DNA of 64,000 bases from Polyangium jinanense. GTDB taxonomy: Bacteria; Myxococcota; Polyangia; Polyangiales; Polyangiaceae. The notes under the pieces are model-generated. The model ran no database searches. It was given only the letters and a program-made list of their open reading frames with translations, and was not told where the DNA came from. Position numbers and translations under genes: made by a program. Numbering within the stretch: position 1 is the first letter of the stretch; every line of letters starts with the position of its first letter. Shown piece after piece: positions 1-44,023 of the stretch. The stretch is from contig NZ_JAGTJJ010000010.1 of NCBI RefSeq assembly GCF_028435365.1, positions 62,001 to 126,000 on the forward strand, in the 5' to 3' direction.

Positions 1-337
1 AGGCGCGGAGGTGGTCGATGAGGATCTTGCGTTTGTCCTCGTCGGTGGCCGCGCCCTGGTAGGCGACCATGAGGGAGGCGGCCTCGCCGTTCAGGCGGTC
101 GAGCTCGCCGACGGCGACGTCGGCAGCGCGTATGAGGGAGGCGATGAAGATGCCCGGGGGATGCGGGCCCGGGCCGAGCTCGGCGGCGATGTTCTCGGCG
201 ATGCGCTCGACGGTGGGGACACGGAGCTTCGCCATGAGGGGCGAGACGCTCTGGAAGAGGTCGACCGCGAGCCCGTCCCGCCCGTCGGCGTAGCGGGATT
301 TGCGTTTGGTGAGCGCTGGAGCGAGGGGGTACTTCAA
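1..337 (-). CDS. Partial hypothetical protein, last visible gene of the CapC-like operon (3' end outside window)
   Basis: The minus-strand frame is open from the TTG at 337 to the window edge, giving about 112 residues that begin LKYPLAPALTKRKSRYADG. The TTG overlaps the TGA of the upstream 1,615-residue gene as TTGA, the same 4-bp coupling style used through the whole operon, and this decides the start; an internal ATG 34 codons later is the alternative. The visible part is soluble-looking and helical, with no signal peptide or membrane segment (for example the stretch VERIAENIAAELGPG). I do not recognise the family. Position implies a role with the CapC-like genes, possibly cytoplasmic. The real C-terminus is not visible. 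Confidence 0.6.
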   Translation of the reverse strand, partial: MKYPLAPALTKRKSRYADGRDGLAVDLFQSVSPLMAKLRVPTVERIAENIAAELGPGPHPPGIFIASLIRAADVAVGELDRLNGEAASLMVAYQGAATDEDKRKILIDHLRA

Positions 338-11800: not shown

Positions 11801-12111
11801 AGCACCGCGCCGACGATGAACAGGTAGAAGCGCTCGCGCCCGAACGCCGCCGACCATGCGCCGAGGTGCGTGACCCATCGGCCCACGCCCGCGACGAGCC
11901 AGTACGTCACGACCGACTCGACGATGATGAAGATCGCGGTCGCGGGCGCGGCGATGAAGATCGTCGCGAGGTAGCCGGGGACGACGAGGCCTGCGTAGGT
12001 CCAGCCGAACAGCTCGGTGAACACCGTCCCGATCACGAGGCCGATGAGCACGGCGACGTGCAGGCTTCGATCGAGACCGTTGGGCGGGAAGACGGCGAGA
12101 GAGGCCAGCAT
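8854..12111 (-). CDS. Tandem CapC/PgsC-like membrane protein with large C-terminal domain
   Basis: The protein has 1,085 residues. Residues 1-350 are polytopic and contain two CapC/PgsC-like units. The first has TELFGWTYAGLVVPGYLAT (about 32-50) and the second has GWDYNGILVPGLLAVACYE (about 217-235), followed by FGFGYLLPSLLAVKMWNK (304-321). CapC/PgsC is the small membrane subunit of poly-gamma-glutamate synthesis and export, normally about 150 residues; here it is duplicated and fused to about 700 non-membrane residues ending in a Lys-rich stretch (KKTEKKKKG) and a Cys-containing tail. It is first of five overlapping genes. The ATG follows the hairpin at 12131-12162. The family call rests on the repeated VPG motifs and helix pattern. 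Polymer chemistry is unknown, and no CapB ligase is in the window. Confidence 0.75.
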   Translation of the reverse strand: MLASLAVFPPNGLDRSLHVAVLIGLVIGTVFTELFGWTYAGLVVPGYLATIFIAAPATAIFIIVESVVTYWLVAGVGRWVTHLGAWSAAFGRERFYLFIVGAVLVRLLFEGVIVPRVEAQYGFAHSRELYSVGLVLVPLVSNTFWNAGIIKAFPRVGFVTVLTWILLVLLLRTTNLSVSRFQVINESLSIKFLESPKAQIILVIGALLGARNNVRYGWDYNGILVPGLLAVACYEPLKLVTTTVEALLVYGASKFLMSVPPFSRMLIVGPRRMLMCYITGFFVKVLLGFVLAYFWPGVPMIDYFGFGYLLPSLLAVKMWNKDHIGIVVMPTLQVSITAFLVGNGIGYGLVKAEGLLVPHAAVSEIAMITSGATVPYELTLGDTGPRPRPAAERSVGIAALEVALEVANEVDGFTETRGGEEVSPRTLTAAKTAGLLVMREEKGGWVVARPRASEIDPDDVTPAPRFAVRPKATQGVVLHRGGFLVLATPEGPGSALPALAHAAAEALGARAIVLLSRHEGQRALDEAFAAELGKRLGLDQMLVVESGGDEPPGVSAVGSVPEGFDVMALGRMLGKDVTLSWRAPLQGATQRPWSNAPTLRVPLALAEEVAGSLLGAREVEVWSGGLRQELVGRVVALTSVGTAGYRGPTIEELRLFDATLARRMPHAGMEPRWTAWERAVAARLGYAIVRVHRPDGEIEAWGLVEDETGGRRGNASLFVKVEKLGLGAEDAEGDPKPQTSTREVVAPGEILIEVPAPRWEIGTFGAGLSLYDALGARGLLIAGALPSADPRGYADPRRRVSRRSFFQRVHEVWLGEGKSGISMQGIAPERDYTGDLVVSFGREVIRREQVPEWARPMVEVFGDLGLRVGMFDGAREHAPYNGSADLSMSYARKFADGRFALVYMSGDLRSAMSAVEGDGILTPRLGRLGVDLGSEDVASRAFELITCKAEAPAPKGAPKKTEKKKKGADDAPPAVAPKSRCPSFAADAANRCDVEARLQSFERYLDQNNPFDLRAAINDRACHVEVVRDAVSRRIWALVAEPGQVVLVPLGTSRVPRAPKPLTSIVRVRRAVATGLTSIRVTESP

Positions 12112-25169: not shown

Positions 25170-27587
25170 ATGAAATGCGCAGCCCCCATCTCTGCCCTCG
25201 TGGCCTCGGCCTCCCTGCTCTTCGGGGGGGTTGCGCGCGCTGACGAACCCCCGAAACCTGCGCCGGCTCCCCCTGCCGCACCTCCCCCCGCGGCGCCCGT
25301 CCTCGTCCCGCCTCGCCCGCTCGCCGCGCTCGAGGCTGCTTATCCGACCCAGCCGGGCCTCACGGGCGAAGCCGACGTCCTGCTCGACGTCACCGTCGCG
25401 GCGGATGGCAGCGTCAAAGAGGCGCGTGTCGTCTCCGGCGACGCGCCCTTCACGGAGGCCGCGTCCCGCGCCGCGCCGTCCTGGCGTTTCGAGCCGGCGA
25501 CGCGCAACGGAAAACCCATCCCCGCGCGTATTCGTGTCCTCATCCACTTCACGCCCCCGGAGCCGCCTGCCGAGGAGGAGACCCCTCCCGCGCCCGAAGA
25601 CGGCGCCGCGCCGAAGGACGGCGCACCCGGCAAAAAGCCGACCGCGACGCCGAAGCCGGCGGGCCCTGCGCCGATCGAGGTCCTTGCGCTCGGCGAACGC
25701 CGCGCCGTCGGGACCTCCTCGCTTGGCCGCGCCGAGGTCCGCGTCTTGCCAGGCGCATTCGGTGATCCCTTCCGCGCCATCGAATCCCTCCCCGGCGTCA
25801 CGCCCATCTTCTCGGGTTTGCCTTTTTTTTACATTCGCGGCGCGCCCCCCGGCAACGTCGGGTATTTCCTCGACAACGTCCGCGTCCCTTATCTGTATCA
25901 CCTCGCCCTCGGCCCCTCGGTCGTCAATCCGGCGATCGTGGACCGGGTCGACCTCTATCCCGGCGGCTACCCTGCGCAATTCGGTCGTTATGCCGGCGGC
26001 ATCGTCGCCGGCGAGACGACCAAGCCGAAGAGCGAGCTCCACGGCGAGGCGAACATCCGGGTCTTCGACGCCGGCGCCATGGTCGAGACCCCGATCGGCG
26101 ATCGCGCCACCGTCATGGCGGGCGGCCGATTCTCGTATACCGCGGCCGCGCTCTCCCTGCTCGCGCCCGGAACCACCCTCAATTATTGGGACTATCAGGC
26201 ACGCGCGACCTTCGACGTCACGCCCACGGATCGCCTCACCCTCTTCGCATTCGGCGCCCACGATTACCTTGGCGCCGAGCTCGACGGCGTCGAGCAGGGC
26301 CTCTTCGACGTCCAGTTCCACCGGATCGACCTCCGCTACGACAAGGACGTCAGCCCTCGCACGCGCCTTCGCCAGGCCATCTCGTTCGGCTACGACCGCA
26401 CGGCCGTCGGTGGCCAGGAGGGCATTTTCGCGCGCGATTTCCTCTTCTCGACGCGGAGCCAGATCCTTCACCGCCGTAGCGAATCCGTGCTCATCCGGGC
26501 CGGCGTCGACGCGAACTTCGATTATTACGACCTCGTCGCGGGCACGGACGACGACGACGGCCGCGATCTCCAGACGTTCCTCGACCAGTTTTTCCCGCCG
26601 CGCCAGGACACCGCGGTCGGGTTTTACGCGGACGCCGTCCTCGACGCGGGCCGCGGCGTCGAATTCACCCCCGGCGCGCGTGTCGACCTCTGGGGCTCGG
26701 GCGGCGTCACCGCGATCAGCGCCGATGTCCGGCTCGCGATGAAGGTCCCCATCGCGCCCCGATTCAAGCTCGTCTCCGCGATGGGCCTCGCCCACCAGCC
26801 GCCCGGGTTCGTCTTGCCTGTCCCCGGCCTCACCATCGGGAAGCTCGCCGGCGGCTTGCAGCGCAGCGTCCAGTCGAGCACGGGCCTCGACGTGAAATTG
26901 CCGTTCGGCTTCGAGGCGACGGGCACGTTTTTCCTCAATGGCTTTTTCAACATGGCCGACGCGCTCGATTCGGTTGGCCGGGCGAACGGCGGCGGAGGAG
27001 GAGGTCCCGGCGGCCCCGGCGGAGGACCCGGCGGCCCTGGAGGCCCCGGAGGCCCCGGCGGGCCGCCGACCGACGAGGAGGACGACGATGACGACGACGC
27101 GAACGTGATCACCGATCGATCCCTCGGCACCGCCGTGGGGCTCGAGATCTACATCCGCCGCAAGCTCACGGAGCGGCTCGGCGGATACATCGCTTATACG
27201 CTCTCCCGCTCGTCGCGGAGCATCGGCTTCTCCTCGGGCCCGGCGCAATTCGATCGCACCCACGTCCTGAATGGCGCGATCTCCTGGGACGCCGGCAAGG
27301 GCTGGCGCCTCGGCTCGCGTGTCGTTTTCTACACGGGTTTACCCATCGCGGCCGAGACCGCCGCGATCTGGGGCAAGAGCCGCACCGATCCCTTCTTCCG
27401 TATCGACGCGCGCATCGAAAAGCGCTGGGACCTGAAAAAGCGCGGCTGGGTCTCGCTCGTGATCGAGATGCTCAACGCGACGCTCAGCAAGGAGCAAACC
27501 GGCGTCAGTTGCGGCTCCACCGAATGCGAGGCCCAGGAGATCGGACCGGTCACCGTGCCGAGCATCGGCGTCGAGGGCGGGCTTTAG
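25170..27587 (+). CDS. TonB-dependent outer-membrane receptor with N-terminal TonB C-terminal-like domain
   Basis: The protein has 805 residues. A signal peptide (cleavage near ARADE) is followed by a Pro-rich stretch, then a TonB C-terminal-like domain (about 45-128, with LLDVTVAADGSVKEARVVSG and WRFEPATRNGKPI). A second Pro/Lys-rich linker leads to the plug (about 170-290: FFYIRGAPPGNVGYFLDN, DRVDLYPGGYPAQFGRYAGG) and a beta-barrel to residue 805. One predicted loop (about 605-645) is a striking Gly-Pro-Gly run followed by an acidic run (DEEDDDDDD). The receptor would import a large ligand with energy from TonB-ExbB-ExbD; the fused domain may act in periplasmic signalling or self-coupling. 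The loop could bind metal ions. It converges with the ADC-like gene at 27597. Confidence 0.88.
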   Translation: MKCAAPISALVASASLLFGGVARADEPPKPAPAPPAAPPPAAPVLVPPRPLAALEAAYPTQPGLTGEADVLLDVTVAADGSVKEARVVSGDAPFTEAASRAAPSWRFEPATRNGKPIPARIRVLIHFTPPEPPAEEETPPAPEDGAAPKDGAPGKKPTATPKPAGPAPIEVLALGERRAVGTSSLGRAEVRVLPGAFGDPFRAIESLPGVTPIFSGLPFFYIRGAPPGNVGYFLDNVRVPYLYHLALGPSVVNPAIVDRVDLYPGGYPAQFGRYAGGIVAGETTKPKSELHGEANIRVFDAGAMVETPIGDRATVMAGGRFSYTAAALSLLAPGTTLNYWDYQARATFDVTPTDRLTLFAFGAHDYLGAELDGVEQGLFDVQFHRIDLRYDKDVSPRTRLRQAISFGYDRTAVGGQEGIFARDFLFSTRSQILHRRSESVLIRAGVDANFDYYDLVAGTDDDDGRDLQTFLDQFFPPRQDTAVGFYADAVLDAGRGVEFTPGARVDLWGSGGVTAISADVRLAMKVPIAPRFKLVSAMGLAHQPPGFVLPVPGLTIGKLAGGLQRSVQSSTGLDVKLPFGFEATGTFFLNGFFNMADALDSVGRANGGGGGGPGGPGGGPGGPGGPGGPGGPPTDEEDDDDDDANVITDRSLGTAVGLEIYIRRKLTERLGGYIAYTLSRSSRSIGFSSGPAQFDRTHVLNGAISWDAGKGWRLGSRVVFYTGLPIAAETAAIWGKSRTDPFFRIDARIEKRWDLKKRGWVSLVIEMLNATLSKEQTGVSCGSTECEAQEIGPVTVPSIGVEGGL

Positions 27588-27596
27588 CGGCTCGTA

Positions 27597-28571
27597 TCAG
27601 GGCGCGCGCCAGAGCTCGACGCCGTTCTCCACCACGGCATCCATGTCCACGAACAGCCCGACGAGATCGCCGAACGAGCCCGTGGCGAGCCCCATCTCCT
27701 CGATGATCGGGTGGCTGTCGGCCACCTTCAGGTTCAACGCGAAGCGGCCATCCAGCACGCCGGCCCGGCGGAAACGCTGGATCGTCGCGCGCGCCTCGAC
27801 GCCCGATTGATAACAGGCCCTCTCGGGCCGCTCGGCATCACGGAATTGCTTCAGCAGCGCGAATGTGAGGCCGGACGACATCGATCGCGAAAGATCGAGG
27901 CGCACGGCGGATTCGGGCTCCGCGCTCTCCCGCCCACCGAAGAGCCGGTCCGACAAACCCGCTGCGGCCGCCTGCGGATCGTCCCAGACCTCGTCGAAGA
28001 GCGCCCGGCTCGTCCCGGGGACTTTCGTGATCTGGAAGAGCTGCTCCGTGCGCCCCAGGGTCCGTGGACCGAACCGGTCGATCACGACCGGCGAGACGCG
28101 GAACACGCTCGCGGAAGCCGCGTCGTACGGGACCTCCAGGTGCGCGAGCTCGCCCGGGAAACCCCATACCTCGCGCCCCGTCACGACGGCATGTCCCTCG
28201 TCGAAGAACGAGTAATAAGGGAAAACCACCGGCCGATTGGCCAGGGGGCTCGGCCCCGTGGGGCGCGTGGACAGGGCGGGGATCCAGACGCCCCCCGCGG
28301 CGACCGAGAAAAACCCCCGCTGGGCGTCAGGCGCGCTCTCGGGGCGCATGACGCCGAATCGAGCGAGGGTGAAGACGACCCGCGACGAATACACCCGATA
28401 ATCGCAGACCCCGAAGGACGGGCGATTCAGGAACCGATCGCAGACCACCTGCAGGCGGCGGACGTCCGCCTCGACCGGGAACAGATAGAGCGTCGCGCTC
28501 GAAAGCGCGAGCGGCTGCGCGAGCGCCTGGTTGTCCGGGCGCTCGACGTATTTTCCGACGCCCGCGCTCAC
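27597..28571 (-). CDS. Acetoacetate-decarboxylase-like protein, type I paralog
   Basis: The protein has 324 residues from a GTG that overlaps the stop of the FAD-enzyme gene by 4 bp (GTGA), so the two are translationally coupled. The ADC-superfamily signature VVTGREVWGFPGELAHLEV is present (about 130-150), but the PKK of acetoacetate decarboxylase, whose first Lys forms the Schiff base, is PGE here. Classical decarboxylase chemistry is therefore unlikely. The C-terminal half has LLKQFRD, ACYQSGVEA and LDGRFALNLKVADSHP, all shared with the protein at 36616-37593. No signal peptide. I infer a modified role in the isoprenoid-like cluster, such as binding, cyclisation or aldol chemistry. Confidence 0.75.
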   Translation of the reverse strand: MSAGVGKYVERPDNQALAQPLALSSATLYLFPVEADVRRLQVVCDRFLNRPSFGVCDYRVYSSRVVFTLARFGVMRPESAPDAQRGFFSVAAGGVWIPALSTRPTGPSPLANRPVVFPYYSFFDEGHAVVTGREVWGFPGELAHLEVPYDAASASVFRVSPVVIDRFGPRTLGRTEQLFQITKVPGTSRALFDEVWDDPQAAAAGLSDRLFGGRESAEPESAVRLDLSRSMSSGLTFALLKQFRDAERPERACYQSGVEARATIQRFRRAGVLDGRFALNLKVADSHPIIEEMGLATGSFGDLVGLFVDMDAVVENGVELWRAP

Positions 28572-31500
28572 AAGAGGCTCCGGAGCGCGAGTTTGTTCTT
28601 GCCCTGCCCGAGCTCGACGAGGCGCGACGCGAGGCCCGAGGGCGCCGGCAGCGAGAGCTTCCAGCGCGTGCGAATCTGGAAGCCGAACGAACGGCTCGTG
28701 GTGGCGTCGAACCCGGTGATGTCGTATTTGCCGCGCATCGGCCCCGCGAGATACTCGTCATCGAGGGTCACCCGGCCGTCGAGCGGGCGCACCTCGCACC
28801 GCCCGAGCCCCCAGTCGAGGCAGGCCGAAACGAAAGGCCCGAGGCCACGCGCCGAGCGTGTGAGGATCGGCTGCGAGAGCATCGACGAGATGGCCTTCAC
28901 GTTGTGACCGATCGCCCCCGTCCTGCAGGCGGGGTCGAGCCCGGCCTTGCGGATCGGCAATTTGCAGATGGGGCCCCGGTCGAGCCAATCTTCGAGGCTG
29001 CGGAACGCCTCGCGCCCTTGCATCGACGCCGAAAGCGCGCAGAAGCGGCGCAGCGGCGAGCGGACCTGCCAGAGCCGCTCGGGCGTGGAGGTGCTGCGTT
29101 TGTCCCTGATTTCGACGCTGGCGAGCTCGGTATCGAAGCCCCAGAACAAGAGGCCGCCGCCCGCCATGAGCGGATCGGTCACGTAGAAGCGCGGTACGTA
29201 CGTGAAGGGACCGCGCCCGAGGGAAAAACCCGTCATGCGGACGAAGGGAATGGCGTTCATCACCTCCAGGTAATTTCGATGGAGCAGCGAGCGCGGGAAC
29301 GAGAAGCGCGCGCCTTCTCGCGCGCCGAGCGTGATCACGAGCGGATGGAAGCCGGGCGGCGTGATCTCCTGCTCCTCGAGCTCGAGCCCGGCTGGGAGCA
29401 TGCGCCGCACGTCGTTCTCGGGCAGGAAGATGACCATGACGGCGCCATCGTAATCGCCGAGGACCTCGAGGGGGCCCAGCGCGGGCGTGGTGCCTCGCAC
29501 GTCGTAATCGCCGACGATGTTCTCCGGGAAGCCGCAGATCGCGCGTGACACCTGCATGCCGGACATCGCCGCGGACTCGACGCAGCCCGTATTGAGCCCG
29601 TTTTTCGTCCAGTCGCCGGCGAGGAAGAGGTTTTCGAAGCCGGACTTGTCCGAATGCAGGCGATAATGGGTCGAGCCCTTCGGCGACATGACGTAGCGCT
29701 CGGAGGGATCGATGTTCGCGCGCCAGTATTGCGCGTCGAACCTCGCCTTGCCGTCGCGGTGCCGGGGATCGACCAGGAAAAACCAGTTGAGCTCGTCCTC
29801 GTCGTGGGTCGTGGTCGCGAGCGGCCAGAGCACGCCGGGGTTTTTCGTGAGCCATTCGATGGAGGTGCGCCGGACCGCCTCGTGCATCCTCCGCGGGAAA
29901 TCGTGATCCCAGGGCGGGGGCAGCCCGTCCCTCTGCAGCGCGGCCGCGGCGATGCCCGTCGGGGTGGCCGTGGACGAAGGAGGCGCGAACAGGCTCACCG
30001 GGGCGTCGGTCGCGCCGACGAAGGGGGGCTGCGGCGGGGGCAGGTGCGTGGCCGAGACGGGGATCGAGGCGACCGGGAAGGGGCGCAGGAGGTCCGCGTC
30101 GAGCAGCGGGCCGGTGAAATACGCGAGGCTGCCGGGGTAATCGCGATTCGGGTCTTCCGGCGTCCCCACGGGCCAGTTCTCGCGATTGATGAGGTGCGTC
30201 ATGTCGCAGTACGTGTTCTCGGGCTGCGCATAGGCCGCGACGCACGACGAAGCCCCGTTCCAGCCGAGATTCTGGAGGCTCGGGCGCATCCAGAGCTGCA
30301 TGGACTGGGTCTGCACGGTGGGGATGTGCTCGACCATGTCCTGCCATTGCCGGCTGTGCTCGATGAGCTCCTGGCAGATGAACGGCAGCGCGCCGAGCGC
30401 GATGCCGAGGACCACGATGTCGAAATCCTCGCCCTTCTTCAGAACGCGCTTCTCGACGGGCTTCCACGAGGACCAGAAGGATTCGAGGTTGTAATTGAGC
30501 TTCGTCCAGCCCGCCCGCAGCGCGTCGCCGTCCACGATTTGCTCGTAGAGCGGCTCGCTCGGCCAGGAGAGCAGGCCCTTCGTGGAGAAGAGCGGATAAT
30601 ATTCGCGGAGATGGGCCGGCCGCACCGACTTGGGTTGTTCCGAGGGCGGGGGCTCGTCCGTCTCCAAGACCAGCGGCGCTTGCTGGATCGGGGCGTCGTC
30701 CTCGTGGCGCGGCGGCTCCTGCGGCCCCGTGGGGGGCGGCTTGATCCACACCTGCCGGTCGATGCGGATTCGCTCGATCTCCGTTTTCGACGCGTCGAGC
30801 TCGAGCTTGGTCACGCGATGGAAGAATTCGAAGCGCACGCCGCGGCTCTTCAGGACGATGTAGAGCGGCGCGAAGACGACGTCGCCCATGCCGGCCTGCA
30901 TCTTCCAGAAGATCGCCCCGCGGTACTCGAAGAGCATCCGCAGCATGGCGCGCACCATCGCGCCCGCGGCCATGTTCGGCCTTCGCGGGTCACCCTTCTC
31001 GTAAGCGAACACGAAATCGTACGTGCCGCGGATGATGCCCGATCGGAGCGTGAGCTCGTTCGCCCCATTGCGGCGCAGCCATTCGACGAGATCGTACTTG
31101 TCGATGACATCCCAGCCGTGCTCGAGGACCCCGTCGAAGACCACGCCGCGCACACCGGCCGTGATGAGATCGATCAGGATCCACAGGCGCCGGAGGACCG
31201 TGTTTTGCTCGACGATGTGCTCGATCTCGTCCCACAACCACTCCCTCAGGTCGGCGAGGATCTCGCAGATGGTCGACCCGTGCTCGTGCGAGGCCCGGGC
31301 GAGCTCCCGTGCGCGGAGGAGCTGCAGGTGCGCGGTCGTGGGACCGAGGACGAGCCGCGTCCGGTGCCGCTGGCTCGATGCGTTCGAGCGACGCGCCACG
31401 AGGCCGAGCGCGCTGCCCACGACCCCGACGGTCATGGTGGCGATGTCCGCCAGGAAGCTCTCCTTGCGCACTCCCTCCGCGGAGGCCAGACCGACCGGCG

Positions 31501-32113
31501 GCGAAGTATTTTCGGGGGGAGGGGTTTGCGACGCGGCGCTATCCGGGTTTGCCCCCGGAACGGGCGCGCCCTGGGGCGGGCCGAAGGGCGACGTTTGGAA
31601 CGCGTGGAGCGCGAGGCCGATCATTTCCCCGGCGATGTCCCAGATTGACAAGAACTCCTTGCCTTGCCCGGGCGTCTGCTTGTTTTCCCGGAAATGCTCG
31701 ATCCAGAAAACCCAGTCCGGATCGACTTCGAGGCCGCGGATTCCCGCATCCTCCCCCTCGATGCTCTCCATCACGCCGACGTACGAGAATTTCTTGAACG
31801 CCTCGTCCCAGCTCGACAGGGGCATGTTTGGATTGCGGCCGAGCTCCTCGTAGCAGCGCCGCATCATGTTGAAGGCGTTCTCGTAGAAGCCGAGCCAAAC
31901 ATGCAGCCCGTGCTCCTCGATGCGATCGGAGGCCTTGCGATTGCGACCGCTCGCGCCCTTGCCGCCGAGGCGAAACCCTTGCTGATAGACGGTCACGTCG
32001 TACTCGTCTTTCCAGCCTGGGACGCTCGTGAGCTCGAATGCCGCCGTCATCGCGCCCACGCCGCTGCCGAGGATCGCGATCTTTTTCTTTCTGGTCGGTG
32101 CTGATCCGGACAT
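28568..32113 (-). CDS. FAD-dependent desaturase/dehydroxylase-like enzyme fused to an ADC-like domain
   Basis: The protein has 1,181 residues from the ATG at 32113, preceded by GGAGGCGGAG. The frame runs on to 32371 but would overlap the divergent gene. The N-terminal Rossmann FAD motif (KKIAILGSGVGAMTAAFEL) is followed by RLGGKGASGRN and RIEEHGLHVWLGFYENAF, as in phytoene-desaturase/hydroxysqualene-dehydroxylase relatives. The closing FAD motif FENLFLAGDWTKNGLNTG...ESAAMSG lies near residue 840. Residues about 882-1181 form a separate ADC-like domain related to the proteins at 32340 and 37835 (GRGPFTYVPRFYVTDP, LLFWGFDTELASVE), with DTE at the PKK position. It should oxidise or desaturate an isoprenoid. 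It is first of a two-gene operon. Confidence 0.8.
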   Translation of the reverse strand: MSGSAPTRKKKIAILGSGVGAMTAAFELTSVPGWKDEYDVTVYQQGFRLGGKGASGRNRKASDRIEEHGLHVWLGFYENAFNMMRRCYEELGRNPNMPLSSWDEAFKKFSYVGVMESIEGEDAGIRGLEVDPDWVFWIEHFRENKQTPGQGKEFLSIWDIAGEMIGLALHAFQTSPFGPPQGAPVPGANPDSAASQTPPPENTSPPVGLASAEGVRKESFLADIATMTVGVVGSALGLVARRSNASSQRHRTRLVLGPTTAHLQLLRARELARASHEHGSTICEILADLREWLWDEIEHIVEQNTVLRRLWILIDLITAGVRGVVFDGVLEHGWDVIDKYDLVEWLRRNGANELTLRSGIIRGTYDFVFAYEKGDPRRPNMAAGAMVRAMLRMLFEYRGAIFWKMQAGMGDVVFAPLYIVLKSRGVRFEFFHRVTKLELDASKTEIERIRIDRQVWIKPPPTGPQEPPRHEDDAPIQQAPLVLETDEPPPSEQPKSVRPAHLREYYPLFSTKGLLSWPSEPLYEQIVDGDALRAGWTKLNYNLESFWSSWKPVEKRVLKKGEDFDIVVLGIALGALPFICQELIEHSRQWQDMVEHIPTVQTQSMQLWMRPSLQNLGWNGASSCVAAYAQPENTYCDMTHLINRENWPVGTPEDPNRDYPGSLAYFTGPLLDADLLRPFPVASIPVSATHLPPPQPPFVGATDAPVSLFAPPSSTATPTGIAAAALQRDGLPPPWDHDFPRRMHEAVRRTSIEWLTKNPGVLWPLATTTHDEDELNWFFLVDPRHRDGKARFDAQYWRANIDPSERYVMSPKGSTHYRLHSDKSGFENLFLAGDWTKNGLNTGCVESAAMSGMQVSRAICGFPENIVGDYDVRGTTPALGPLEVLGDYDGAVMVIFLPENDVRRMLPAGLELEEQEITPPGFHPLVITLGAREGARFSFPRSLLHRNYLEVMNAIPFVRMTGFSLGRGPFTYVPRFYVTDPLMAGGGLLFWGFDTELASVEIRDKRSTSTPERLWQVRSPLRRFCALSASMQGREAFRSLEDWLDRGPICKLPIRKAGLDPACRTGAIGHNVKAISSMLSQPILTRSARGLGPFVSACLDWGLGRCEVRPLDGRVTLDDEYLAGPMRGKYDITGFDATTSRSFGFQIRTRWKLSLPAPSGLASRLVELGQGKNKLALRSLL

Positions 32114-32269
32114 CACTCGCTCCGCCTCCGCGAGAGCCCCCTCCTCAGGTCGCGCGTGTCGCACGCCCGCGGGGAGGGCCGTCGGGAGCCACCGGCCATG
32201 GTAAACGTCTTGCGAGAAGCCACGCAAGCTCAGAGCAACGTTTGGCCGAGCGCGGAGCCTGCGTGCAAT

Positions 32270-32283
32270 TGAAGTAGACTTCA
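32270..32283. promoter_or_regulatory. 14-bp palindrome in the divergent promoter region
   Basis: TGAAGT-AG-ACTTCA is a perfect 6-bp-arm inverted repeat in the 226-bp gap between the divergent FAD-enzyme gene and the ADC-like gene at 32340. It is a plausible operator controlling one or both operons. Confidence 0.35.
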
Positions 32284-32339
32284 GGGTGCGTCTTGGTGTA
32301 CCATGACGAGTTCCGTACGAGGTCCTTTGCGGAGGATGG

Positions 32340-33215
32340 ATGCTCGAGAGCCCGTACCGGTCCATGAACATCGTCGGAAAGCTGTCCAGTTGCTATGTGA
32401 CGCTCGTCATGCCTCGTGACGAGGTGGCGTGGATGCTGCCGGAGGGTTTGGCGCTCGGACCCCAGGACCACACGCCTCCGGGGACGCACCCCGTCGTGCT
32501 CTCCTTCAGCCACCGCTACGACGTGCGCGTCACGTTGCCTCGCCTGCTCCTGCCCGGGACGACGTACAAGGAGCAGGCCATCGGCGTGCCGTTCGTCCAT
32601 GCCAAGCGCGACCTCTGCGGGGGGCGCGCGCGTGGCCCTTTCCTCTACGTGCCGCGCCTCTTCGCGAGCCAGATCCTGCCCGTGATCGGCGGATGGCTCT
32701 TCTGGGGTTTGGCGAAGCAACTCGGCCGCATTCGGGAGATGTCGTTTGGCCCGGACAAGGGGGCGAACGGCGCGGGCGCGGAGGCGCCTCGTTCCGAGAA
32801 AAACCCCCACGAAACGAGGCACGAGACCGGGACGTACCGCGTCTTTCCCCCCGGGGACGACGCCGAGTCGATCGTGTCGCTGAGCTACGAGGTGACCGGC
32901 GATTTCCAGCCCATGGCGCGGGTGCCGAACCACGAGGCGATCCTCGACGTCCTGCGCCAGCCGCTCATCTGCTGCCAGCCGGTCGGCCGCGGTCCGCTCT
33001 TCTCGTGCGCCGATCACGAAAATGACTGGGAGCGCGCCCAGGCGCGGCCTCTTCATACGACGACGCGCATCGAGGATGCGTTCGTCCCGGGGCTCGTCGT
33101 CGGGACCTATCGCTCGCGCGGGCTCGACATGTCGCCGCTCGGGTCGTTCCAGCTCCGCGCCCCTTTCAAGCTCACCCTGCCCCATTGCTGCGGGCGCGGG
33201 CACAGCCTCGCTTGA
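32340..33215 (+). CDS. Acetoacetate-decarboxylase-like protein, type II paralog
   Basis: The protein has 291 residues. The ATG at 32340 is preceded by GGAGG at good spacing. It shares its layout with the protein at 37835-38671 and the C-terminal domain of the FAD enzyme: VTLVMPRDEVAWMLPEGL near the N-terminus, CGGRARGPFLYVPRLF, LFWGLAKQLGRI at the ADC-signature position, a QPLICCQPVGRGPLFSC segment, and the C-terminal SFQLRAPFKLTLPHCCGRG. At the catalytic PKK position it has AKQ, so the Lys survives in a shifted context. There is an Ala/Gly/Glu-rich insert at about 138-160. Cytoplasmic. It is 32 bp upstream of the CrtC-synthase fusion, likely one operon. Confidence 0.7.
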   Translation: MLESPYRSMNIVGKLSSCYVTLVMPRDEVAWMLPEGLALGPQDHTPPGTHPVVLSFSHRYDVRVTLPRLLLPGTTYKEQAIGVPFVHAKRDLCGGRARGPFLYVPRLFASQILPVIGGWLFWGLAKQLGRIREMSFGPDKGANGAGAEAPRSEKNPHETRHETGTYRVFPPGDDAESIVSLSYEVTGDFQPMARVPNHEAILDVLRQPLICCQPVGRGPLFSCADHENDWERAQARPLHTTTRIEDAFVPGLVVGTYRSRGLDMSPLGSFQLRAPFKLTLPHCCGRGHSLA

Positions 33216-33247
33216 TCGATGGAGAACCTTCGGCACGAGACGACGAG

Positions 33248-35524
33248 ATGACATCGACCCCGGCAGCCATGAAGCTCGGAGCCGCGCGCGGCCCGGATCC
33301 CGCCCGGACCCCTTCCGAAAACGAGAAAGCCCCCGAGCATGCGAGCGTGGATTTCACGCAGCGCGACGCTCCCGAGGGCGCGTGGTTCGAACGCTGGTCC
33401 GCCGCCGTCCACGTCGAGACGAAGGATCAGCGCGCCCTCACGGTGTGGGCCGCCTTCGATCGGAGGCTCTACGCCGGCGCGGACGGCGAGCCGGTGCCGA
33501 CCCACGGCCTCTCCTTCGCGCTCAGCGACGAGAGCACGAAGCGATACCGCCCGAGGCTGGAGCTCGACGCGGCGCGCCGAAACGCCCTGCGGGACGCCAT
33601 CACGCACGGCACGGCGCCCATGGATCGGCACCTCGCCCGCGCCGCGCTGGAGATGCTCGACGCGGAAACGCTCCCCGCCCCCGCGCACGGGATGCACGCC
33701 GAGCCCACCCTCGACCCGCGGGGCCTCGAGCTGCGTTACGGCGGCAGCCTGCTCTCGCGAAGGCCGGACGGGAGTTATCGGCTCGTGCTCGGGCAACTCC
33801 GCGGCGCGCGCGGCTGCGACCTGCGCTTGCGCGCGCTCAAGCCCGCGCTGCTCCTCCACGACGCGCGTGAGAGTTCTCCCGGCGAGGAGGGGGCCTCGCT
33901 CCACTACACGCTCCCGAGCTGCTTCGTCGACGGCACGATCTTCCTCGACGGCCAGGAGCTCCGGGTCTCGGGGTTCGGCCACTACGATCGCCTGATCGGG
34001 CCTTCTTCCGGCGCATCCGTGAGCGAAGGGCCGAAAGCGCCGAGCGTGGTGCAGCGGGCGTTCCTCCACCTCGACGACGGCAGCTCAGTTGTCGTGCAGG
34101 TCCTCGCGCGGGAAGGTCAGGACACGAAGCGCGCGCGGGCCATCGTCATGGACGTCCGCGGGCGTTCGCTCGCCGAGGCGCACGCCACGCTCGCGCCGAT
34201 CGGCACGTGGCGGAGCCCGCGCTCGTACCAGGAGTATCCTGTCTCCTTCACGCTACGGATCCCCGGCGGCGGGCTCGAGCTCGTGCTCGAAGCGACCATG
34301 CCTGCGCAGGAGGTCCATGGCCTTCTGGGCAGCGTCTCCGCGTGGCGAGGACGCGCGCGTGTCAAAGGCACGCGCTGGGGGCGGCCGATCGAGGGCGTCG
34401 GCTGGGTCGAGCAGACGTCTCCGCCTGCCTACGTCGATCTCGGGGGCTTCCTCTCCGCCGCGCATCGGAGCGTGCGACGTGAGATCGCCGCGCTCGTCTC
34501 GCGCGCCCCTTCCGAGCCGGTGCTCGCGGAGATCCTCGGCTGCGTGGGCCACGAGGAGCGGCTCGAGGGCGTCGAGCCCGAGCTCATCGGCCGTTCGCTC
34601 ACGGGGCCGCTCCTCGACGTCCTCGATCGCGGCGGCAAGGGCTGGCGCTCGTTCGTCACGCTCGCGTGCATCGACGCGGTTGGCGGCGACGCCACGGGGT
34701 TTGCTCCATGGCTCGCGATCCCCGAGCTCATCCACACGGGCTCGCTTCTCGTCGACGACGTGCAGGACGGTTCGACGATCCGCCGCGGCGGCCCGGCCTG
34801 TCACCTCCTCCACGGCGAGCCGACGGCGATCAACGCGGGCACGGCGGCGTATTTCCTGGCCGAGCTCTTCCTCTCGCGCTCCGCGCTCCCGCCCGAGCGC
34901 GCCGAGCGTGTCATGCACCTCTACTTCGACGCGATGCGCGCGGGGCACGGAGGGCAGGCCCTCGACATCGCCGGCCTCGAGGATCTCTTGCCGGCCGCGG
35001 TGGCGTCGGGCGACACGCAGGAGCTCGTGCGTCGCGTCACGGCCATCAACCGGCTCAAGACGGCCGTGCCCGCGGGCGCGCTGGCACGCATGGGCGCGAT
35101 CGCCGGAGGCGGCACCGAGGCGCAGGTCGAGGGGCTCGGCGTGTACGTCGAGTCCATCGGGCTCGCGTTCCAGATCATCGACGACGTCCTGAACGTGCGC
35201 GGCTTCCAGGGGAACTTGAAGCAGCGGGGCGAGGACATTCGTATCGGCAAGGTCACGTTGCCCGTCGTGCGCGCGCTCGGACTCCTCGATCGCGACGAGC
35301 GCGAGCACCTCGCGCGCACGCTCCGGGACAAACCCGACGACGACGCCGTGGTCGAGGACCTGATCGGGCGCATCGAGCGCACGGGCGCGCTCGACGCGTG
35401 CGTGCGCGACGCCCAGAACCTCGTCGAGACGGCGTGGACGCGGCTCTCACCGCTCGTCGCGCCCTCGGTCGCGACCGCGCGACTGCGCGCGTTCGGCTGG
35501 TACGTGCTCGATCGGAGCTACTGA
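33248..35524 (+). CDS. Carotenoid-hydratase-like (CrtC/AttH fold) - polyprenyl diphosphate synthase fusion
   Basis: The protein has 758 residues from the ATG at 33248; upstream TTG codons overlap the preceding gene and were rejected. Residues about 40-390 resemble the CrtC/AttH lipocalin-like family (SLLSRRPDGSYRLVLG, VDGTIFLDG, SGFGHYDRLIG, YQEYPVSFTLRIPGG, EGVGWVEQTS). Members hydrate carotenoid ends or catalyse pericyclic steps. Residues about 420-758 are a trans-prenyl diphosphate synthase with the first Asp-rich motif DDVQD (503-507), then STIRRGGPACH, and the second as DDVLN (645-649, final Asp replaced by Asn), then GEDIRIGKVTLPV. One chain may thus make a prenyl diphosphate and act on the derived product. 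The stop overlaps the convergent reductase gene by 7 bp. Confidence 0.85.
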   Translation: MTSTPAAMKLGAARGPDPARTPSENEKAPEHASVDFTQRDAPEGAWFERWSAAVHVETKDQRALTVWAAFDRRLYAGADGEPVPTHGLSFALSDESTKRYRPRLELDAARRNALRDAITHGTAPMDRHLARAALEMLDAETLPAPAHGMHAEPTLDPRGLELRYGGSLLSRRPDGSYRLVLGQLRGARGCDLRLRALKPALLLHDARESSPGEEGASLHYTLPSCFVDGTIFLDGQELRVSGFGHYDRLIGPSSGASVSEGPKAPSVVQRAFLHLDDGSSVVVQVLAREGQDTKRARAIVMDVRGRSLAEAHATLAPIGTWRSPRSYQEYPVSFTLRIPGGGLELVLEATMPAQEVHGLLGSVSAWRGRARVKGTRWGRPIEGVGWVEQTSPPAYVDLGGFLSAAHRSVRREIAALVSRAPSEPVLAEILGCVGHEERLEGVEPELIGRSLTGPLLDVLDRGGKGWRSFVTLACIDAVGGDATGFAPWLAIPELIHTGSLLVDDVQDGSTIRRGGPACHLLHGEPTAINAGTAAYFLAELFLSRSALPPERAERVMHLYFDAMRAGHGGQALDIAGLEDLLPAAVASGDTQELVRRVTAINRLKTAVPAGALARMGAIAGGGTEAQVEGLGVYVESIGLAFQIIDDVLNVRGFQGNLKQRGEDIRIGKVTLPVVRALGLLDRDEREHLARTLRDKPDDDAVVEDLIGRIERTGALDACVRDAQNLVETAWTRLSPLVAPSVATARLRAFGWYVLDRSY

Positions 35525-36567
35525 GGACGAATCGAGGCCGGGCCCGCGCCGATGCGCACGACGACCTTCCCGACGTTTTTCCCGGTGTGCAGGTGCTCGA
35601 CCGCGTCGATGCACGACGCGAGCCCTTCGAATGGCGTCGGGTCCACGTGGACCGAAAGGGCGCCGGCGCCTGAAAGCTCGAGCAGCTCCGCGAGATGCCC
35701 GGCGATCCGATCGGCGAAGTGGAACAGGAAGAAGCCGCGAATCTCCGCGGATTTCCAGAGCAGCTCGTGGTAGACGCGCGGCGCCGTGGTCGAGGCGGGC
35801 TCGGGGCGCGTGTACTCCGAGACGAACCCGCACACGAGCAGCCTTCCGCGGATGGCCAGGTTCGCGAGCGAGGCGTCGAACAGGGCGCCGCCGACCGATT
35901 CGAATGCGATGTCGACGCCCCGCGGGTACTCCTGGGCGAGGACCTCGCCGAGATCCTCGGTCCGATGGTTCACGATACGGTCGCAGCCGAGCCTTTCGAG
36001 GAACTCGCGTTTTTCCTCGGCGCCGCAGACGCCGATGACGTGATTGCCCGCGCGCTTGGCGAGCTGCACCGCGAATTGCCCGACACCGCCCGCCGCGGCC
36101 GTCACCACGACCGTCTCGCCGGAGCCCATGCGCCCGACCTCCTTCAGGCCGATCGACGCAGTCAGGCCGTTCACGAGGATGGCGAGCATCTCGGGCGTGG
36201 CGCGGGGAATGGGGATACACGCCGATGCGGGGGCGAGCAGGTACTCGCGAAACCCGCCGCCGATGACCAGGGCCATCACCAGATCGCCCACCTTGAGGCT
36301 CGTCACGCCGGGCCCTACCGCGACGACCTCGCCGGCCGACTCCGCGCCGAGATCGATATCGGACGACCTCGTGCTGGCCACCTTGAACGCATCGTAAGCG
36401 GATGCGGAGATGTTCGGGTCCGAAGCGTTCACGCCGGCGACCACGTTGCGAACGAGGACCTCTCCCGGCCCCGGCAAGACGAGATCGGCGTCCACGATCT
36501 TCGCGACGGCGCGGAAATCACGGCTCGGGTGAACTGCGATGAGCTTCTTGTAGGTTGTCGGTAGCAT
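35518..36567 (-). CDS. MDR-superfamily NAD(P)H-dependent enone/quinone reductase
   Basis: The protein has 349 residues. GroES-like N-terminal half (GEVLVRNVVAGVNASDPN, near 35-52), nucleotide-binding Rossmann domain with AAAGGVGQFAVQLAKRAG (about 153-170) and the C-terminal substrate lobe. The Cys/His zinc ligands of classic alcohol dehydrogenases are absent, so it belongs with zinc-free quinone reductases and prostaglandin-reductase-3/ZADH2-like enzymes that reduce alpha,beta-unsaturated ketones. In this cluster it could reduce an enone on an isoprenoid scaffold. It follows the ADC-like gene at 36616 by 48 bp on the same strand. Confidence 0.88.
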   Translation of the reverse strand: MLPTTYKKLIAVHPSRDFRAVAKIVDADLVLPGPGEVLVRNVVAGVNASDPNISASAYDAFKVASTRSSDIDLGAESAGEVVAVGPGVTSLKVGDLVMALVIGGGFREYLLAPASACIPIPRATPEMLAILVNGLTASIGLKEVGRMGSGETVVVTAAAGGVGQFAVQLAKRAGNHVIGVCGAEEKREFLERLGCDRIVNHRTEDLGEVLAQEYPRGVDIAFESVGGALFDASLANLAIRGRLLVCGFVSEYTRPEPASTTAPRVYHELLWKSAEIRGFFLFHFADRIAGHLAELLELSGAGALSVHVDPTPFEGLASCIDAVEHLHTGKNVGKVVVRIGAGPASIRPQ

Positions 36568-36615
36568 GTCGACCGTCCGTGCCTTCCTGGGGCGCTCGCG
36601 CGCGCGTGGCTCGAT

Positions 36616-37593
36616 TCAAAACGCCTTCCAGCGCGTGACGCCGGTGTCGAGCGTGAAATCCATGTCCACGAAGAAACCGCGGACCGCGTCGAAGCTGCGC
36701 GGCGTGAGCCCCAGCGCGGAGACCATCGGGTGGCTGTCGGCGGTCTTCACGTCGAGCGTGTAGCGCCCATCCAGCAAACCGGCCCAGCGAAAGCAGTCGA
36801 TCCGCGTGCCGGCCTCGATGCCGGCCTGATAACAGGCGCGGCTGGGATCCGAAACGTCCCGGAATTGCTTGAGGAATGCGAACCTGGGCCCCGTGCGCAG
36901 GAGGTCGACCATCGACAGGACGAGCCCGAGGCCGGGGACGGTGATCATGGGGCCGCCGAAGACGAGGTCGACGAGCGCCTCGAGCGCGGCTTTGCCCTCG
37001 GTAAAACCCTGCGCCACGACCCCGCGCGAGGTACCTCCGACCCGGTTCACCTGCACGAGGTACTCTCGCTGCGCGAGCACGTCGGGCCCGAAGCGATCGA
37101 AGAGCGTGGGCCGGATCTGGAAGAGATCGGCCACGGAGGGCCTCGTCGGGACCGTGATCTCCGCGATTTCTTTGGGCCATCCCTGGTCCTCGCGCCCGCT
37201 CGCGACGGCGTGGCTCGAGGTCGCGAACATGTAATAGGGGAAGAGCACGAGGCGCGTGGCGACCGGGATCGGACCTGTTTTATCGATCGACACGAGCGGG
37301 ATCCAGATCCCTGCCTCGGTGTAGTTGAAGCTGCCCTGGTCGCGGAAGACCGGCACGGTCGAGGACACGGTGCCCGTGTGGGTGAAGACGAGAAATACCT
37401 GAGGAAAAAACGCGCGGTAGCTGGCGAGGCCCTTCGAGGGGGCGTTCAAGAACTTGTCAGCGAGCGCTTGTTGCCTCTGCGTGTCGCTCTCGAGCGGGAA
37501 AAAATAGGCCGTTACGTTCTGGAGCGCCGCGGGCGTCGGCATCGCTTGGTTGTCCGCTCGCTCGACGTATTTCGGCAAATTGGCTCTGCTCAT
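36616..37593 (-). CDS. Acetoacetate-decarboxylase-like protein, type I paralog
   Basis: The protein has 325 residues, a close paralog of the protein at 27597-28571: both start with a KYVERxDNQA block and share LKQFRD, ACYQxGxEA, LDGRxxLxxKxADSHP and a final FVDMD segment. Here the signature reads ASGREDQGWPKEIAEITV, so the Lys matching the Schiff-base residue of acetoacetate decarboxylase is kept (PKE), while the second Lys is Glu. It may retain Schiff-base chemistry of the decarboxylase or aldolase-dehydratase type. No signal peptide. First gene of a two-gene operon with the MDR reductase, divergent from the type II paralog at 37835. Confidence 0.75.
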   Translation of the reverse strand: MSRANLPKYVERADNQAMPTPAALQNVTAYFFPLESDTQRQQALADKFLNAPSKGLASYRAFFPQVFLVFTHTGTVSSTVPVFRDQGSFNYTEAGIWIPLVSIDKTGPIPVATRLVLFPYYMFATSSHAVASGREDQGWPKEIAEITVPTRPSVADLFQIRPTLFDRFGPDVLAQREYLVQVNRVGGTSRGVVAQGFTEGKAALEALVDLVFGGPMITVPGLGLVLSMVDLLRTGPRFAFLKQFRDVSDPSRACYQAGIEAGTRIDCFRWAGLLDGRYTLDVKTADSHPMVSALGLTPRSFDAVRGFFVDMDFTLDTGVTRWKAF

Positions 37594-37822
37594 GCCTTGT
37601 CTCGGCCGCGGGGTTCGGGGGCGAGGCCCGTTCGTCCGGGCGGAGCGCCCCTCGTCTCGGAGCCCGGAACGCGGATGACGAGGCTAGCCGAGCTTCGGGG
37701 GCGGAAGCAAGTGTCGCGAGGCGACGCTGACTCTTGACACCTGTCCCAATCGAGCCTGACCATGGGACGATGTTCTTACCCGTACAGGTCCGGCTGCGCC
37801 GCCTCGCCGTACCACGATGCGT

Positions 37823-37829
37823 GGGGAGG
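37823..37829 (+). promoter_or_regulatory. Ribosome-binding site fixing the start at 37835
   Basis: GGGGAGG lies 5 nt before ATG 37835 and decides this start against an in-frame alternative six codons upstream. Confidence 0.7.
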
Positions 37830-37834
37830 TCGTC

Positions 37835-38671
37835 ATGTCGCTGAACCCCTACCAGGGCATGAAGCTCGTGGGTCAATGGTCGGTCTACGGCGTCACGATC
37901 GCGCTCCCTCGCGAGGACGTCCGGTGGATGCTCCCCGACGGGCTCGAGCTCGGCGATCAGGATTTGACGCACCGGGATACCCATCCGGTGTCGCTGTACT
38001 TCGGCCACGTGCGCGACGCGCACATGACGTTTCCGCGGTTTTTTCCCCCCGAGATGACGTATTTCGAGCAGGTCGTCGGCGTGCCGTACGTGTACGCGAA
38101 GCGCCCGCTCTGTGGAGGGCGGGTCCGGGGGCCCTTCTTTTACATGCCGCGGCTTTTCTTGACGAACCTGCTCGCGACCCTCGGCGGCATCCTTTTTTGG
38201 GGTTTTCCCAAGAAGCTGGTCCGCGTCGTCGAGGGCACGAACCCCGCGAGGACCGACGGGTCGTATGCCGTATGTCCCCTCTATGGAGGAGGCGACGAGA
38301 TCCTCGGGCTGCAGTGGGGCGCCACGGGGGCGTTCGAGCCGGCAACGGCCGTGCCCTCCTTCCAGCGGCAGCTCGAGATCATGACCCAGCCGCTCGTGTC
38401 GCAGCAACCTCTCTCCGTGGGGCCCCTCCTGTCGTGCTCGGACTTCGACAAACTCTGGCGAGAGGCCGAGATTCGGCCCCTGCGCACGAAGACGAACATT
38501 CAAGAAGCATTCGTGCCGGGGCTCGCGCCCGGGAGGTATTCGTCCGAGGGCATCGACCAATCACCGACGGGCGCGTTCCAGCTTCGGGCGCCCTGGGAGC
38601 TCTCGCTCCCTTATTGTTGTGGAAGAGGGCGCGCCCCGGGGGCCGCGCCAAACGTCCCCTCCATCTGGTGA
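37835..38671 (+). CDS. Acetoacetate-decarboxylase-like protein, type II, with intact PKK motif
   Basis: The protein has 278 residues. The layout matches the protein at 32340: VTIALPREDVRWMLPDGL, CGGRVRGPFFYMPRLF, then ILFWGFPKKLVRVVEG and the ending FQLRAPWELSLPYCCGRG. Alone among the five ADC-like domains it keeps the full GFPKK sequence, so it is the best candidate for true Schiff-base catalysis: decarboxylation of a beta-keto acid, or aldol/dehydration chemistry as in characterised ADC relatives. It probably heads a transcript that also carries the giant hybrid kinase 21 bp downstream. A consensus-like TTGACA lies at 37734, without a convincing -10. Confidence 0.78.
   Translation: MSLNPYQGMKLVGQWSVYGVTIALPREDVRWMLPDGLELGDQDLTHRDTHPVSLYFGHVRDAHMTFPRFFPPEMTYFEQVVGVPYVYAKRPLCGGRVRGPFFYMPRLFLTNLLATLGGILFWGFPKKLVRVVEGTNPARTDGSYAVCPLYGGGDEILGLQWGATGAFEPATAVPSFQRQLEIMTQPLVSQQPLSVGPLLSCSDFDKLWREAEIRPLRTKTNIQEAFVPGLAPGRYSSEGIDQSPTGAFQLRAPWELSLPYCCGRGRAPGAAPNVPSIW

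Positions 38672-38692: not shown

Positions 38693-44023
<5,331 letters not shown>

What the first reader, a model, noticed from the sequence alone, without database searches (positions are those of the whole stretch)
27597..38671. Possible undescribed isoprenoid biosynthetic cluster with five ADC-like domains
Within 11 kb lie a prenyl diphosphate synthase fused to a CrtC-like domain, an FAD desaturase-like enzyme fused to an ADC-like domain, four stand-alone ADC-like proteins in two paralogous types, and a zinc-free MDR enone reductase, arranged as two divergent operon pairs. Prenyl synthase, desaturase and hydratase or cyclase functions are the standard logic of carotenoid/terpenoid pathways. 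The multiplied ADC superfamily is not part of any such pathway known to me. No terpene synthase or squalene/phytoene synthase is in the window, so the scaffold may come from elsewhere.
Basis: partly seen in the sequence, partly recalled or inferred. Interest (0 to 1): 0.8.

Follow-up and report, generated by a model that had tools for sequence, protein, structure and literature searches.

The report
FAD enzyme and decarboxylase-fold gene set
A soil myxobacterium carries a set of genes in which a carotenoid-desaturase-like enzyme sits beside five copies of a decarboxylase-type protein and a maker of isoprenoid chains; the pairing recurs in many bacteria and has no known function, so it may mark an unknown kind of isoprenoid chemistry.

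Summary
The seven genes are where stated. All five ADC-like domains are real, in two paralogous types (A: two stand-alone proteins plus the desaturase C-terminus; B: two). Models of one protein of each type significantly match only ADC-superfamily structures. The presumed Schiff-base lysine is kept in three domains and lost in two (27597-28571 and the fused domain).

The conserved unit is the FAD enzyme (a long PDS/ZDS/HpnE relative of no known function) with an ADC domain: FAD is fused or nearby in 52 of 58 type-B ADC loci, from many phyla. A kinase/AAA signalling gene lies within 1 kb in 22 of 58, as it does here (38693-44023). Prenyl synthases join this unit in only two lineages: the window type (three genomes) and a separate cassette (nine loci, seven with a tandem ADC protein). 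FAD and ADC trees and synthase identities indicate separate origins, which supports an isoprenoid substrate. Both lineages pair a lysine-bearing with a lysine-less ADC domain, from separate duplications.

Best reading: an uncharacterised FAD/ADC enzyme pair, here acting on a prenyl-derived product. Substrate and product are unknown.

The parts
27597..28571 (-). ADC-like type B protein that lacks the lysine (GFPGE); overlaps the next gene by 4 bp
   Evidence: close relatives also lack the Lys: E and M, S and M in the 15x6 and 6x1 orthologues
28568..32113 (-). FAD desaturase-like enzyme (long PDS/ZDS/HpnE relative) fused to a C-terminal ADC-like type A domain; frame open up to 32371 but start most likely at 32113
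29504..32089 (-). FAD part of the fusion (residues 9-870 from the likely start)
   Evidence: alignment A1
28616..29485 (-). C-terminal ADC-like type A domain, lysine lost (FWGFDTE, the same in three genomes)
32340..33215 (+). ADC-like type A protein; lysine present in an altered context (LAKQ)
33269..35524 (+). CrtC/AttH-like lipocalin domain (about 33389-34414) fused to polyprenyl synthase (about 34598-35365) with DDVQD and DDVLN motifs; frame open from 33185
35518..36567 (-). MDR enone/quinone reductase-like protein; present in Polyangium sp. 15x6, not found in Polyangium sp. 6x1
36616..37593 (-). ADC-like type B protein with the lysine (GWPKE, K141)
37817..38671 (+). ADC-like type A protein with the lysine (GFPKK, K132)
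38693..44023 (+). Large Ser/Thr kinase - AAA - TPR - GAF - histidine kinase protein, 21 bp after the ADC gene on the same strand; conserved in 15x6, not found in the 6x1 stretch

Best explanation
The cluster is a variant of an apparently undescribed two-part enzyme system: a long FAD-dependent desaturase-like enzyme and an ADC-fold partner that probably forms a Schiff base. Here it has been joined to an isoprenoid supply. Proposed steps, all inferred: the prenyl synthase makes a GGPP-like chain; the fused CrtC/AttH domain hydrates, eliminates or cyclises it; the FAD enzyme desaturates or oxidises the hydrophobic product to a carbonyl compound; the lysine-bearing ADC proteins (P0006, P0007, perhaps P0003) form a Schiff base with that carbonyl and decarboxylate it or do an aldol/dehydration step; the MDR reductase reduces an enone; the two lysine-less ADC domains serve as structural or substrate-holding partners; the kinase next door couples the pathway to a signal. 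Shown: gene content, fold, lysine pattern, conserved FAD-ADC pairing, recurrent kinase neighbours, separate linkage to prenyl synthases. Not shown: any substrate, product or activity.
For: Pairing: with type-B ADC as the only query, FAD is fused (25 loci) or separate within the fetched stretch, mostly as the next gene (27 loci), in 52 of 58 loci. Type A: FAD present in 9 of 9 newly fetched stretches with ADC score >=110 bits and in 2 of 11 with lower scores. Isoprenoid link in two lineages: nine cassette loci hold FAD + prenyl synthase + Pro-rich protein; their FADs form one clade (9 tips, local support 0.999) that excludes the window FAD, and the window synthase is 50-54% identical to CrtC-fused synthases outside Polyangium but 30-34% to cassette ones. 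Lysine: 35 of 36 type A, 42 of 45 type B, 58 of 60 type-B domains (sets overlap); the exceptions are the fused window domain, and P0002 with its close relatives. In all 7 aligned tandem proteins the lysine is invariant in domain 1 and a threonine stands in its place in domain 2 (motifs). P0002/P0006 with orthologues form one clade (0.999) and the tandem domains another (1.0), so the lysine losses are separate (73 domains). Prenyl synthase motifs intact. FAD family nearest to PDS/ZDS/HpnE. ADC fold. Kinase hits: 0.154 per kb within 1 kb of the unit, 0.051 at 1-2.5 kb, 0.027 at 2.5-5 kb, 1 hit in 305 kb at 5-10 kb.
Against: Most FAD-ADC loci show no prenyl synthase within the stretch (2 of 58 do), so the substrate may not be an isoprenoid in general. 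The window-type cluster is in only 2 of 6 Polyangium genomes; 6x1 lacks MDR and kinase. CrtC-prenyl synthase fusions had no FAD gene nearby in 11 of 11 other loci fetched. In 6 of 36 FAD loci (window excluded) no ADC was found; there the partner is DUF5995 (2 loci), an unrecognised N-terminal domain (L090, L103), or none recognised (L093, L109). Two of the nine cassettes (L093, L099) lack the tandem ADC protein. No terpene, squalene or phytoene synthase among the window genes scanned. The seeds of both ADC profiles came from FAD loci, so the pairing rates describe these ADC clades, not ADCs at large.
Confidence: 0.5

Rival explanations
1. Signalling module: the FAD-ADC pair serves the large kinase (makes, destroys or binds a small lipophilic signal sensed by its GAF or AAA-TPR part), and the prenyl synthase and CrtC genes are local passengers.
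For: Kinase-profile hits concentrate within 1 kb of the unit (22 of 58 loci at >=100 bits, my count). Full-length kinase of this architecture beside FAD-ADC in three cyanobacterial loci (1419, 1419 and 1467 bits) and beside a FAD gene in G006, G087 and G072, where matches to its AAA-TPR part number 45, 10 and 7 per genome. Two FAD loci without ADC still have the kinase (L090, L103).
Against: Polyangium sp. 6x1 keeps six cluster genes without the kinase. One other FAD gene of G006 and three of G044 have no such match nearby, and in the G044 cassette it is 5 kb away. The kinase profile mixes kinase and AAA parts and myxobacteria are rich in both. Two separate prenyl synthase linkages are unexplained.
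Confidence: 0.2
2. Catabolic module: FAD-ADC degrades an imported isoprenoid, steroid or other lipid; the ADC proteins act in the retro-aldol or decarboxylation direction.
For: ADC superfamily members include aldolase-type enzymes, and two archaeal ones are induced on phenol (PMC7820114, passages read). A gene with TonB and receptor-plug domains ends 9 bp from the cluster (25170-27587).
Against: A prenyl synthase and CrtC-like domain inside the same divergent unit argue for synthesis. No acyl-CoA, thiolase or monooxygenase family among the Pfam hits of the window genes scanned.
Confidence: 0.15
3. Ordinary carotenoid branch: CrtC-like hydratase and desaturase modify a carotenoid whose backbone is made elsewhere; the ADC proteins are incidental.
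For: CrtC/AttH-like and PDS/ZDS-like domains.
Against: FAD scores far below the carotenoid desaturase cut-offs (37 against 622 bits for ZDS, 13 against 569 for PDS); CrtC below gathering score; ADC is the recurrent partner of this FAD family, not incidental. Carotenoid genes beside the FAD-ADC pairs of other genomes were not searched for systematically.
Confidence: 0.1

Closest known systems
Acetoacetate decarboxylase superfamily (ADC; MppR; Swit_4259; S. bingchenggensis aldolase-dehydratase)
   Different: 11-17% identity in these alignments; two of five domains lack the lysine; paired or fused with an FAD enzyme; the residue after the lysine (K116 in C. acetobutylicum, recalled) is K in P0007 but E in P0006
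Phytoene / zeta-carotene desaturases and hydroxysqualene dehydroxylase HpnE
   Same: N- and C-terminal FAD motifs
   Different: About 700-870 residues; far below all equivalog cut-offs; one PDB sequence matches the family profile, over a short C-terminal stretch
Polyprenyl (GGPP-type) diphosphate synthases
   Same: Complete domain, DDxxD and DDxxN motifs
   Different: Fused to a CrtC/AttH-like domain; the fusion is shared with other myxobacteria at loci without FAD genes
CrtC / AttH lipocalin-like proteins (carotenoid 1,2-hydratase and fungal pericyclases, functions recalled)
   Same: Lipocalin_9 passes; solved AttH 2ich matches at E=9e-8
   Different: CrtC model itself below its cut-off; fused to a prenyl synthase
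Ser/Thr kinase-AAA-GAF-histidine kinase proteins (HstK type of cyanobacteria; name recalled)
   Same: Domain order
   Different: Encoded beside FAD-ADC genes

Membership tests
ADC superfamily | ADC fold | tested here: met
   Tested for P0007 (type A) and P0006 (type B): 24 of 24 Foldseek hits at E<=1e-3 each. P0002, P0003 and the fused domain by sequence homology only
ADC superfamily | Pfam PF06314 above gathering score | tested here: inconclusive
   2 of 5 domains pass (P0006 31.4, P0007 30.9 against 29.8 bits); P0003 26.0, P0002 16.1, fused domain no hit
ADC superfamily | Schiff-base lysine | tested here: inconclusive
   Kept in P0003, P0006, P0007; lost in P0002 (G) and the fused domain (T)
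Acetoacetate decarboxylase as an enzyme | decarboxylates acetoacetate | not testable with these tools
   no assay
Carotenoid desaturase / HpnE equivalogs | NCBIfam score above cut-off | tested here: not met
   HpnE 46.7 against 283; ZDS 37.3 against 622; PDS 13.3 against 569 bits
Carotenoid desaturase / HpnE equivalogs | FAD-binding motifs at both ends | tested here: met
   NAD_binding_8 at the N-terminal end and Amino_oxidase C-end of the FAD part; 56 invariant columns in 15 family members
Polyprenyl diphosphate synthase | full domain and both Asp-rich motifs | tested here: met
   150.6 bits against 27; DDVQD, DDVLN
CrtC carotenoid hydratase | PF07143 above gathering score | tested here: not met
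   20.0 against 22.5 bits; Lipocalin_9 met, 51.9 against 26.2
Terpenoid/carotenoid biosynthetic cluster | a scaffold-forming terpene, squalene or phytoene synthase in the cluster | tested here: not met
   none among the window genes scanned with Pfam; elsewhere in the genome not tested
Anti-phage defence system | PADLOC model hits beyond a generic kinase | tested here: not met
   P0001-P0007 no hit; the hits of the kinase that were listed (25 of 32) lie in its kinase domain

The most novel reading that the evidence does not exclude
A new, multi-phylum enzyme system in which a giant FAD desaturase relative works with a hetero-pair of lysine-bearing and lysine-less ADC-fold subunits to make or break carbon-carbon bonds in isoprenoids, coupled to a dedicated Ser/Thr-histidine kinase; the lysine/no-lysine pairing arose at least twice (separate genes in the window lineage, one tandem protein in the cassette lineage).
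Probability: 0.3. Interest if true: 0.85.

Novelty: new variant of a known kind. Interest (0 to 1): 0.63.

Why it matters
The FAD family is large (5675 proteins at E<=1e-20 among 7990 scored) and, where a listed member bears a name, it is 'NAD(P)-binding protein', 'FAD-dependent oxidoreductase' or 'uncharacterized protein with NAD-binding domain and iron-sulfur cluster' (120 listed). The recurrent ADC partner, the lysine pattern and the twice-arisen prenyl synthase linkage give a concrete lead on substrate class and on how the subunits divide the work, and make the question testable with a small gene set in an organism not known to me as a pathogen.

Tried and rejected
Terpene/phytoene synthase in the window: none found among the genes scanned. 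Anti-phage defence: rejected. Ordinary carotenoid desaturase identity: rejected on score. The idea that the window cluster descends from the wider cassette: rejected by the FAD tree and synthase identities and by the ADC-B tree. Other recurrent neighbours of type-B loci: among the 30 groups printed, those present in six loci were shared flanks of the six Nannocystis loci; one group spanned five unrelated loci (L130, L134, L138, L144, L154) and was not identified. Literature: seven searches combining ADC or CrtC with isoprenoid, terpene, carotenoid, FAD-enzyme, COG3349 or myxobacterial terms returned no paper; (at least 3 of 5 terms) listed four papers and (at least 3 of 4) three, none about such a system by title and abstract start, and none of these seven was read further; one search listed four, two of them read in passages. 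Only open-licence PMC papers are held, so absence is limited. A co-occurrence test of CrtC-synthase and FAD genomes was considered and not run (genome size confounds). The scan used a single peptide pattern and is not exhaustive. The phylum-wide type-A search gave matches in 25 of 377 genomes; I fetched 20 stretches from 17 of these; five had been examined before (G001, G069, G084, G089, G097); G152, G197, G292 and a second contig of G259 were not fetched. The ADC-B tree leaves out the first domain of L184 (split match) and the L115 protein.
Full report
WHAT IS THERE. Between 27597 and 44023 the window holds: type-B ADC (27597-28571-), FAD enzyme + type-A ADC fusion (28568-32113-, frame open to 32371), type-A ADC (32340-33215+), CrtC/AttH-prenyl synthase fusion (about 33269-35524+), MDR (35518-36567-), type-B ADC (36616-37593-), type-A ADC (37817-38671+) and a kinase-AAA-TPR-GAF-histidine kinase (38693-44023+). 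The MDR has no group of four closely spaced cysteines (read by eye), in line with 'zinc-free'.

ORGANISM. The window's own assembly is not held. The nearest genome, G001, shares 28% of sampled 31-mers and carries a 96%-identical fusion protein. Contig length and record title identify it as Polyangium sp. 15x6, and G003 as Polyangium sp. 6x1. The window is therefore most likely from a Polyangium species (inference).

LYSINE PATTERN. The lysine is present in 35 of 36 type-A sequences, the exception being the window's fused domain, and in 42 of 45 type-B sequences, the exceptions being P0002 and two close relatives of it. In the 58 loci, 58 of 60 type-B domains have it; the two exceptions are the P0002 orthologues of 15x6 and 6x1. 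These sets overlap. The fused domain reads FWGFDTE in all three genomes. So two ADC domains of the cluster have lost the lysine while three kept it; P0003 has its lysine in the altered context LAKQ.

CONSERVATION OF THE CLUSTER. Of 97 relatives, 2 have the fusion protein at 80-96% identity (2 of 6 Polyangium genomes); 29 have some FAD relative. Type A is found in 6 of 97, type B in 18 of 97, and the CrtC-prenyl synthase query in 25 of 97 at E<=1e-20, of which 13 genomes match across the CrtC-synthase junction at 35% or more (my count). In 15x6 all eight genes are in the same order; in 6x1 six are, MDR and kinase not being found.

THE WIDER FAMILY. The FAD part belongs to a large family: 5675 proteins at E<=1e-20 among the 7990 candidates scored, without a functional name among the 120 listed. 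A scan of genome contigs with the type-B profile, through one peptide pattern, gave 58 loci. FAD was found in 52: 21 fused FAD-ADC, 4 fused ADC-FAD, 27 as a separate gene, mostly the next one (in L138 5.3 kb away; in 15x6 and 6x1 within the cluster), and 6 without (L128, L131, L152, L153, L159, L162, all titled Chloroflexi, Anaerolineae or Thermoflexales; some contigs are short) (my count). Titles of loci with FAD include Myxococcota, Cyanobacteria, Planctomycetota, Acidobacteria, Chloroflexi, Cytophagales, Sphingomonadales, Rokuibacteriota, Lambdaproteobacteria and Thermoleophilaceae; many are MAGs. For type A, 20 stretches fetched after a phylum-wide search (matches in 25 of 377 genomes) hold FAD in 11: 9 of 9 with ADC score >=110 bits, 2 of 11 below. 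The seeds of both profiles came from FAD loci, so these rates describe these ADC clades. In 36 FAD loci near the window (window excluded), six (L090, L093, L097, L103, L104, L109) have no recognised ADC; DUF5995 is the partner in L097 (fused) and L104 (adjacent).

KINASE. In the 58 loci, kinase-profile hits of >=100 bits number 17 in 110.7 kb within 1 kb of the unit, 8 in 157.0 kb at 1-2.5 kb, 6 in 224.9 kb at 2.5-5 kb, 0 in 192.1 kb at 5-7.5 kb and 1 in 112.5 kb at 7.5-10 kb; by open frames, 22 of 58 loci have one within 1 kb (my count). The profile mixes kinase and AAA parts, so not all hits share the full architecture; the three cyanobacterial ones do (1419-1467 bits). In four genomes of one or two contigs, matches to the AAA-TPR part number 45 (G006), 30 (G044), 10 (G087) and 7 (G072). 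One is beside a FAD gene in G006, G087 and G072 and about 5 kb from one in G044; the second FAD gene of G006 and three of G044 have none nearby. G087 and G072 are of one genus and not independent.

TWO ORIGINS OF THE PRENYL SYNTHASE LINK. Nine loci (L082, L091, L093, L099, L110, L114, L115, L184, L185; nine genomes) hold FAD, a prenyl synthase (269-459-residue frames) and a Pro-rich protein (six of the Pro-rich proteins were seeds of that profile, three were found by it). Seven of them have a 947-1415-residue protein with ADC-B domains in tandem, and four have an ADC-A-like gene (two of these weak, 39 and 63 bits). In the seven tandem proteins the lysine is invariant in the first domain, and a threonine is invariant at the matching place in the second (motifs). 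A phylum-wide search finds the tandem protein in 5 of 377 genomes. Among 105 FAD sequences (some loci represented twice) the nine cassette FADs form one clade (FastTree local support 0.999); the window FAD groups with its orthologues (1.0) and then, at 0.875, with cyanobacterial and other FADs that have type-B ADC and no prenyl synthase in the stretch. The window synthase is 50-54% identical to CrtC-fused synthases outside Polyangium and 30-34% to cassette synthases. In a tree of 73 ADC-B domains, P0002, P0006 and their orthologues form one clade (0.999) and the tandem domains another (1.0). So both the prenyl synthase link and the lysine/no-lysine pairing arose separately in the two lineages. 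I take this as the strongest argument for an isoprenoid substrate; it is still an inference from gene neighbourhood.

MECHANISM. See Best explanation. The order of steps is a proposal. Prenyl synthase activity is likely from intact motifs (DDxxN as a GGPP-synthase feature is recalled). The CrtC/AttH domain matches solved AttH 2ich (E=9e-8). The FAD enzyme's reaction is unknown; its nearest named relatives act on carotenoids or hydroxysqualene (functions recalled).

NOVELTY. No paper on such a system appeared in the searches named under Tried and rejected, which cover open-licence PMC papers only. Each protein family is known; the combination, the lysine pattern and the double origin of the prenyl link are what seems new. 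I rate it a new variant of a known kind.

Noticed in passing
L097:8874-11918 and L104:8289-9056: DUF5995 is fused to, or adjacent to, members of the same FAD family where no ADC was found: a possible alternative partner.
   Followed up: partly
L090:7349-11215 and L103:8182-11268: FAD family members with a 280-290-residue N-terminal stretch that Pfam does not recognise, each next to a full-length kinase of the window type.
   Followed up: partly
L114:11152-12141 and eight other cassette loci: A Pro-rich protein with no Pfam hit (2 members scanned), present in all nine cassette loci and not found in the window cluster.
   Followed up: partly
L074:6502-10479: A CrtC-prenyl synthase fusion gene directly followed by an HMG-CoA synthase-like gene.
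   Followed up: no
window 25170-27587: TonB C-terminal domain and receptor plug domain in one protein, ending 9 bp before the cluster on the opposite strand.
   Followed up: no
window 8854-12111: Protein with two CapC-type capsule synthesis stretches (PF14102), beside large genes at 334-9049 without Pfam hits.
   Followed up: no
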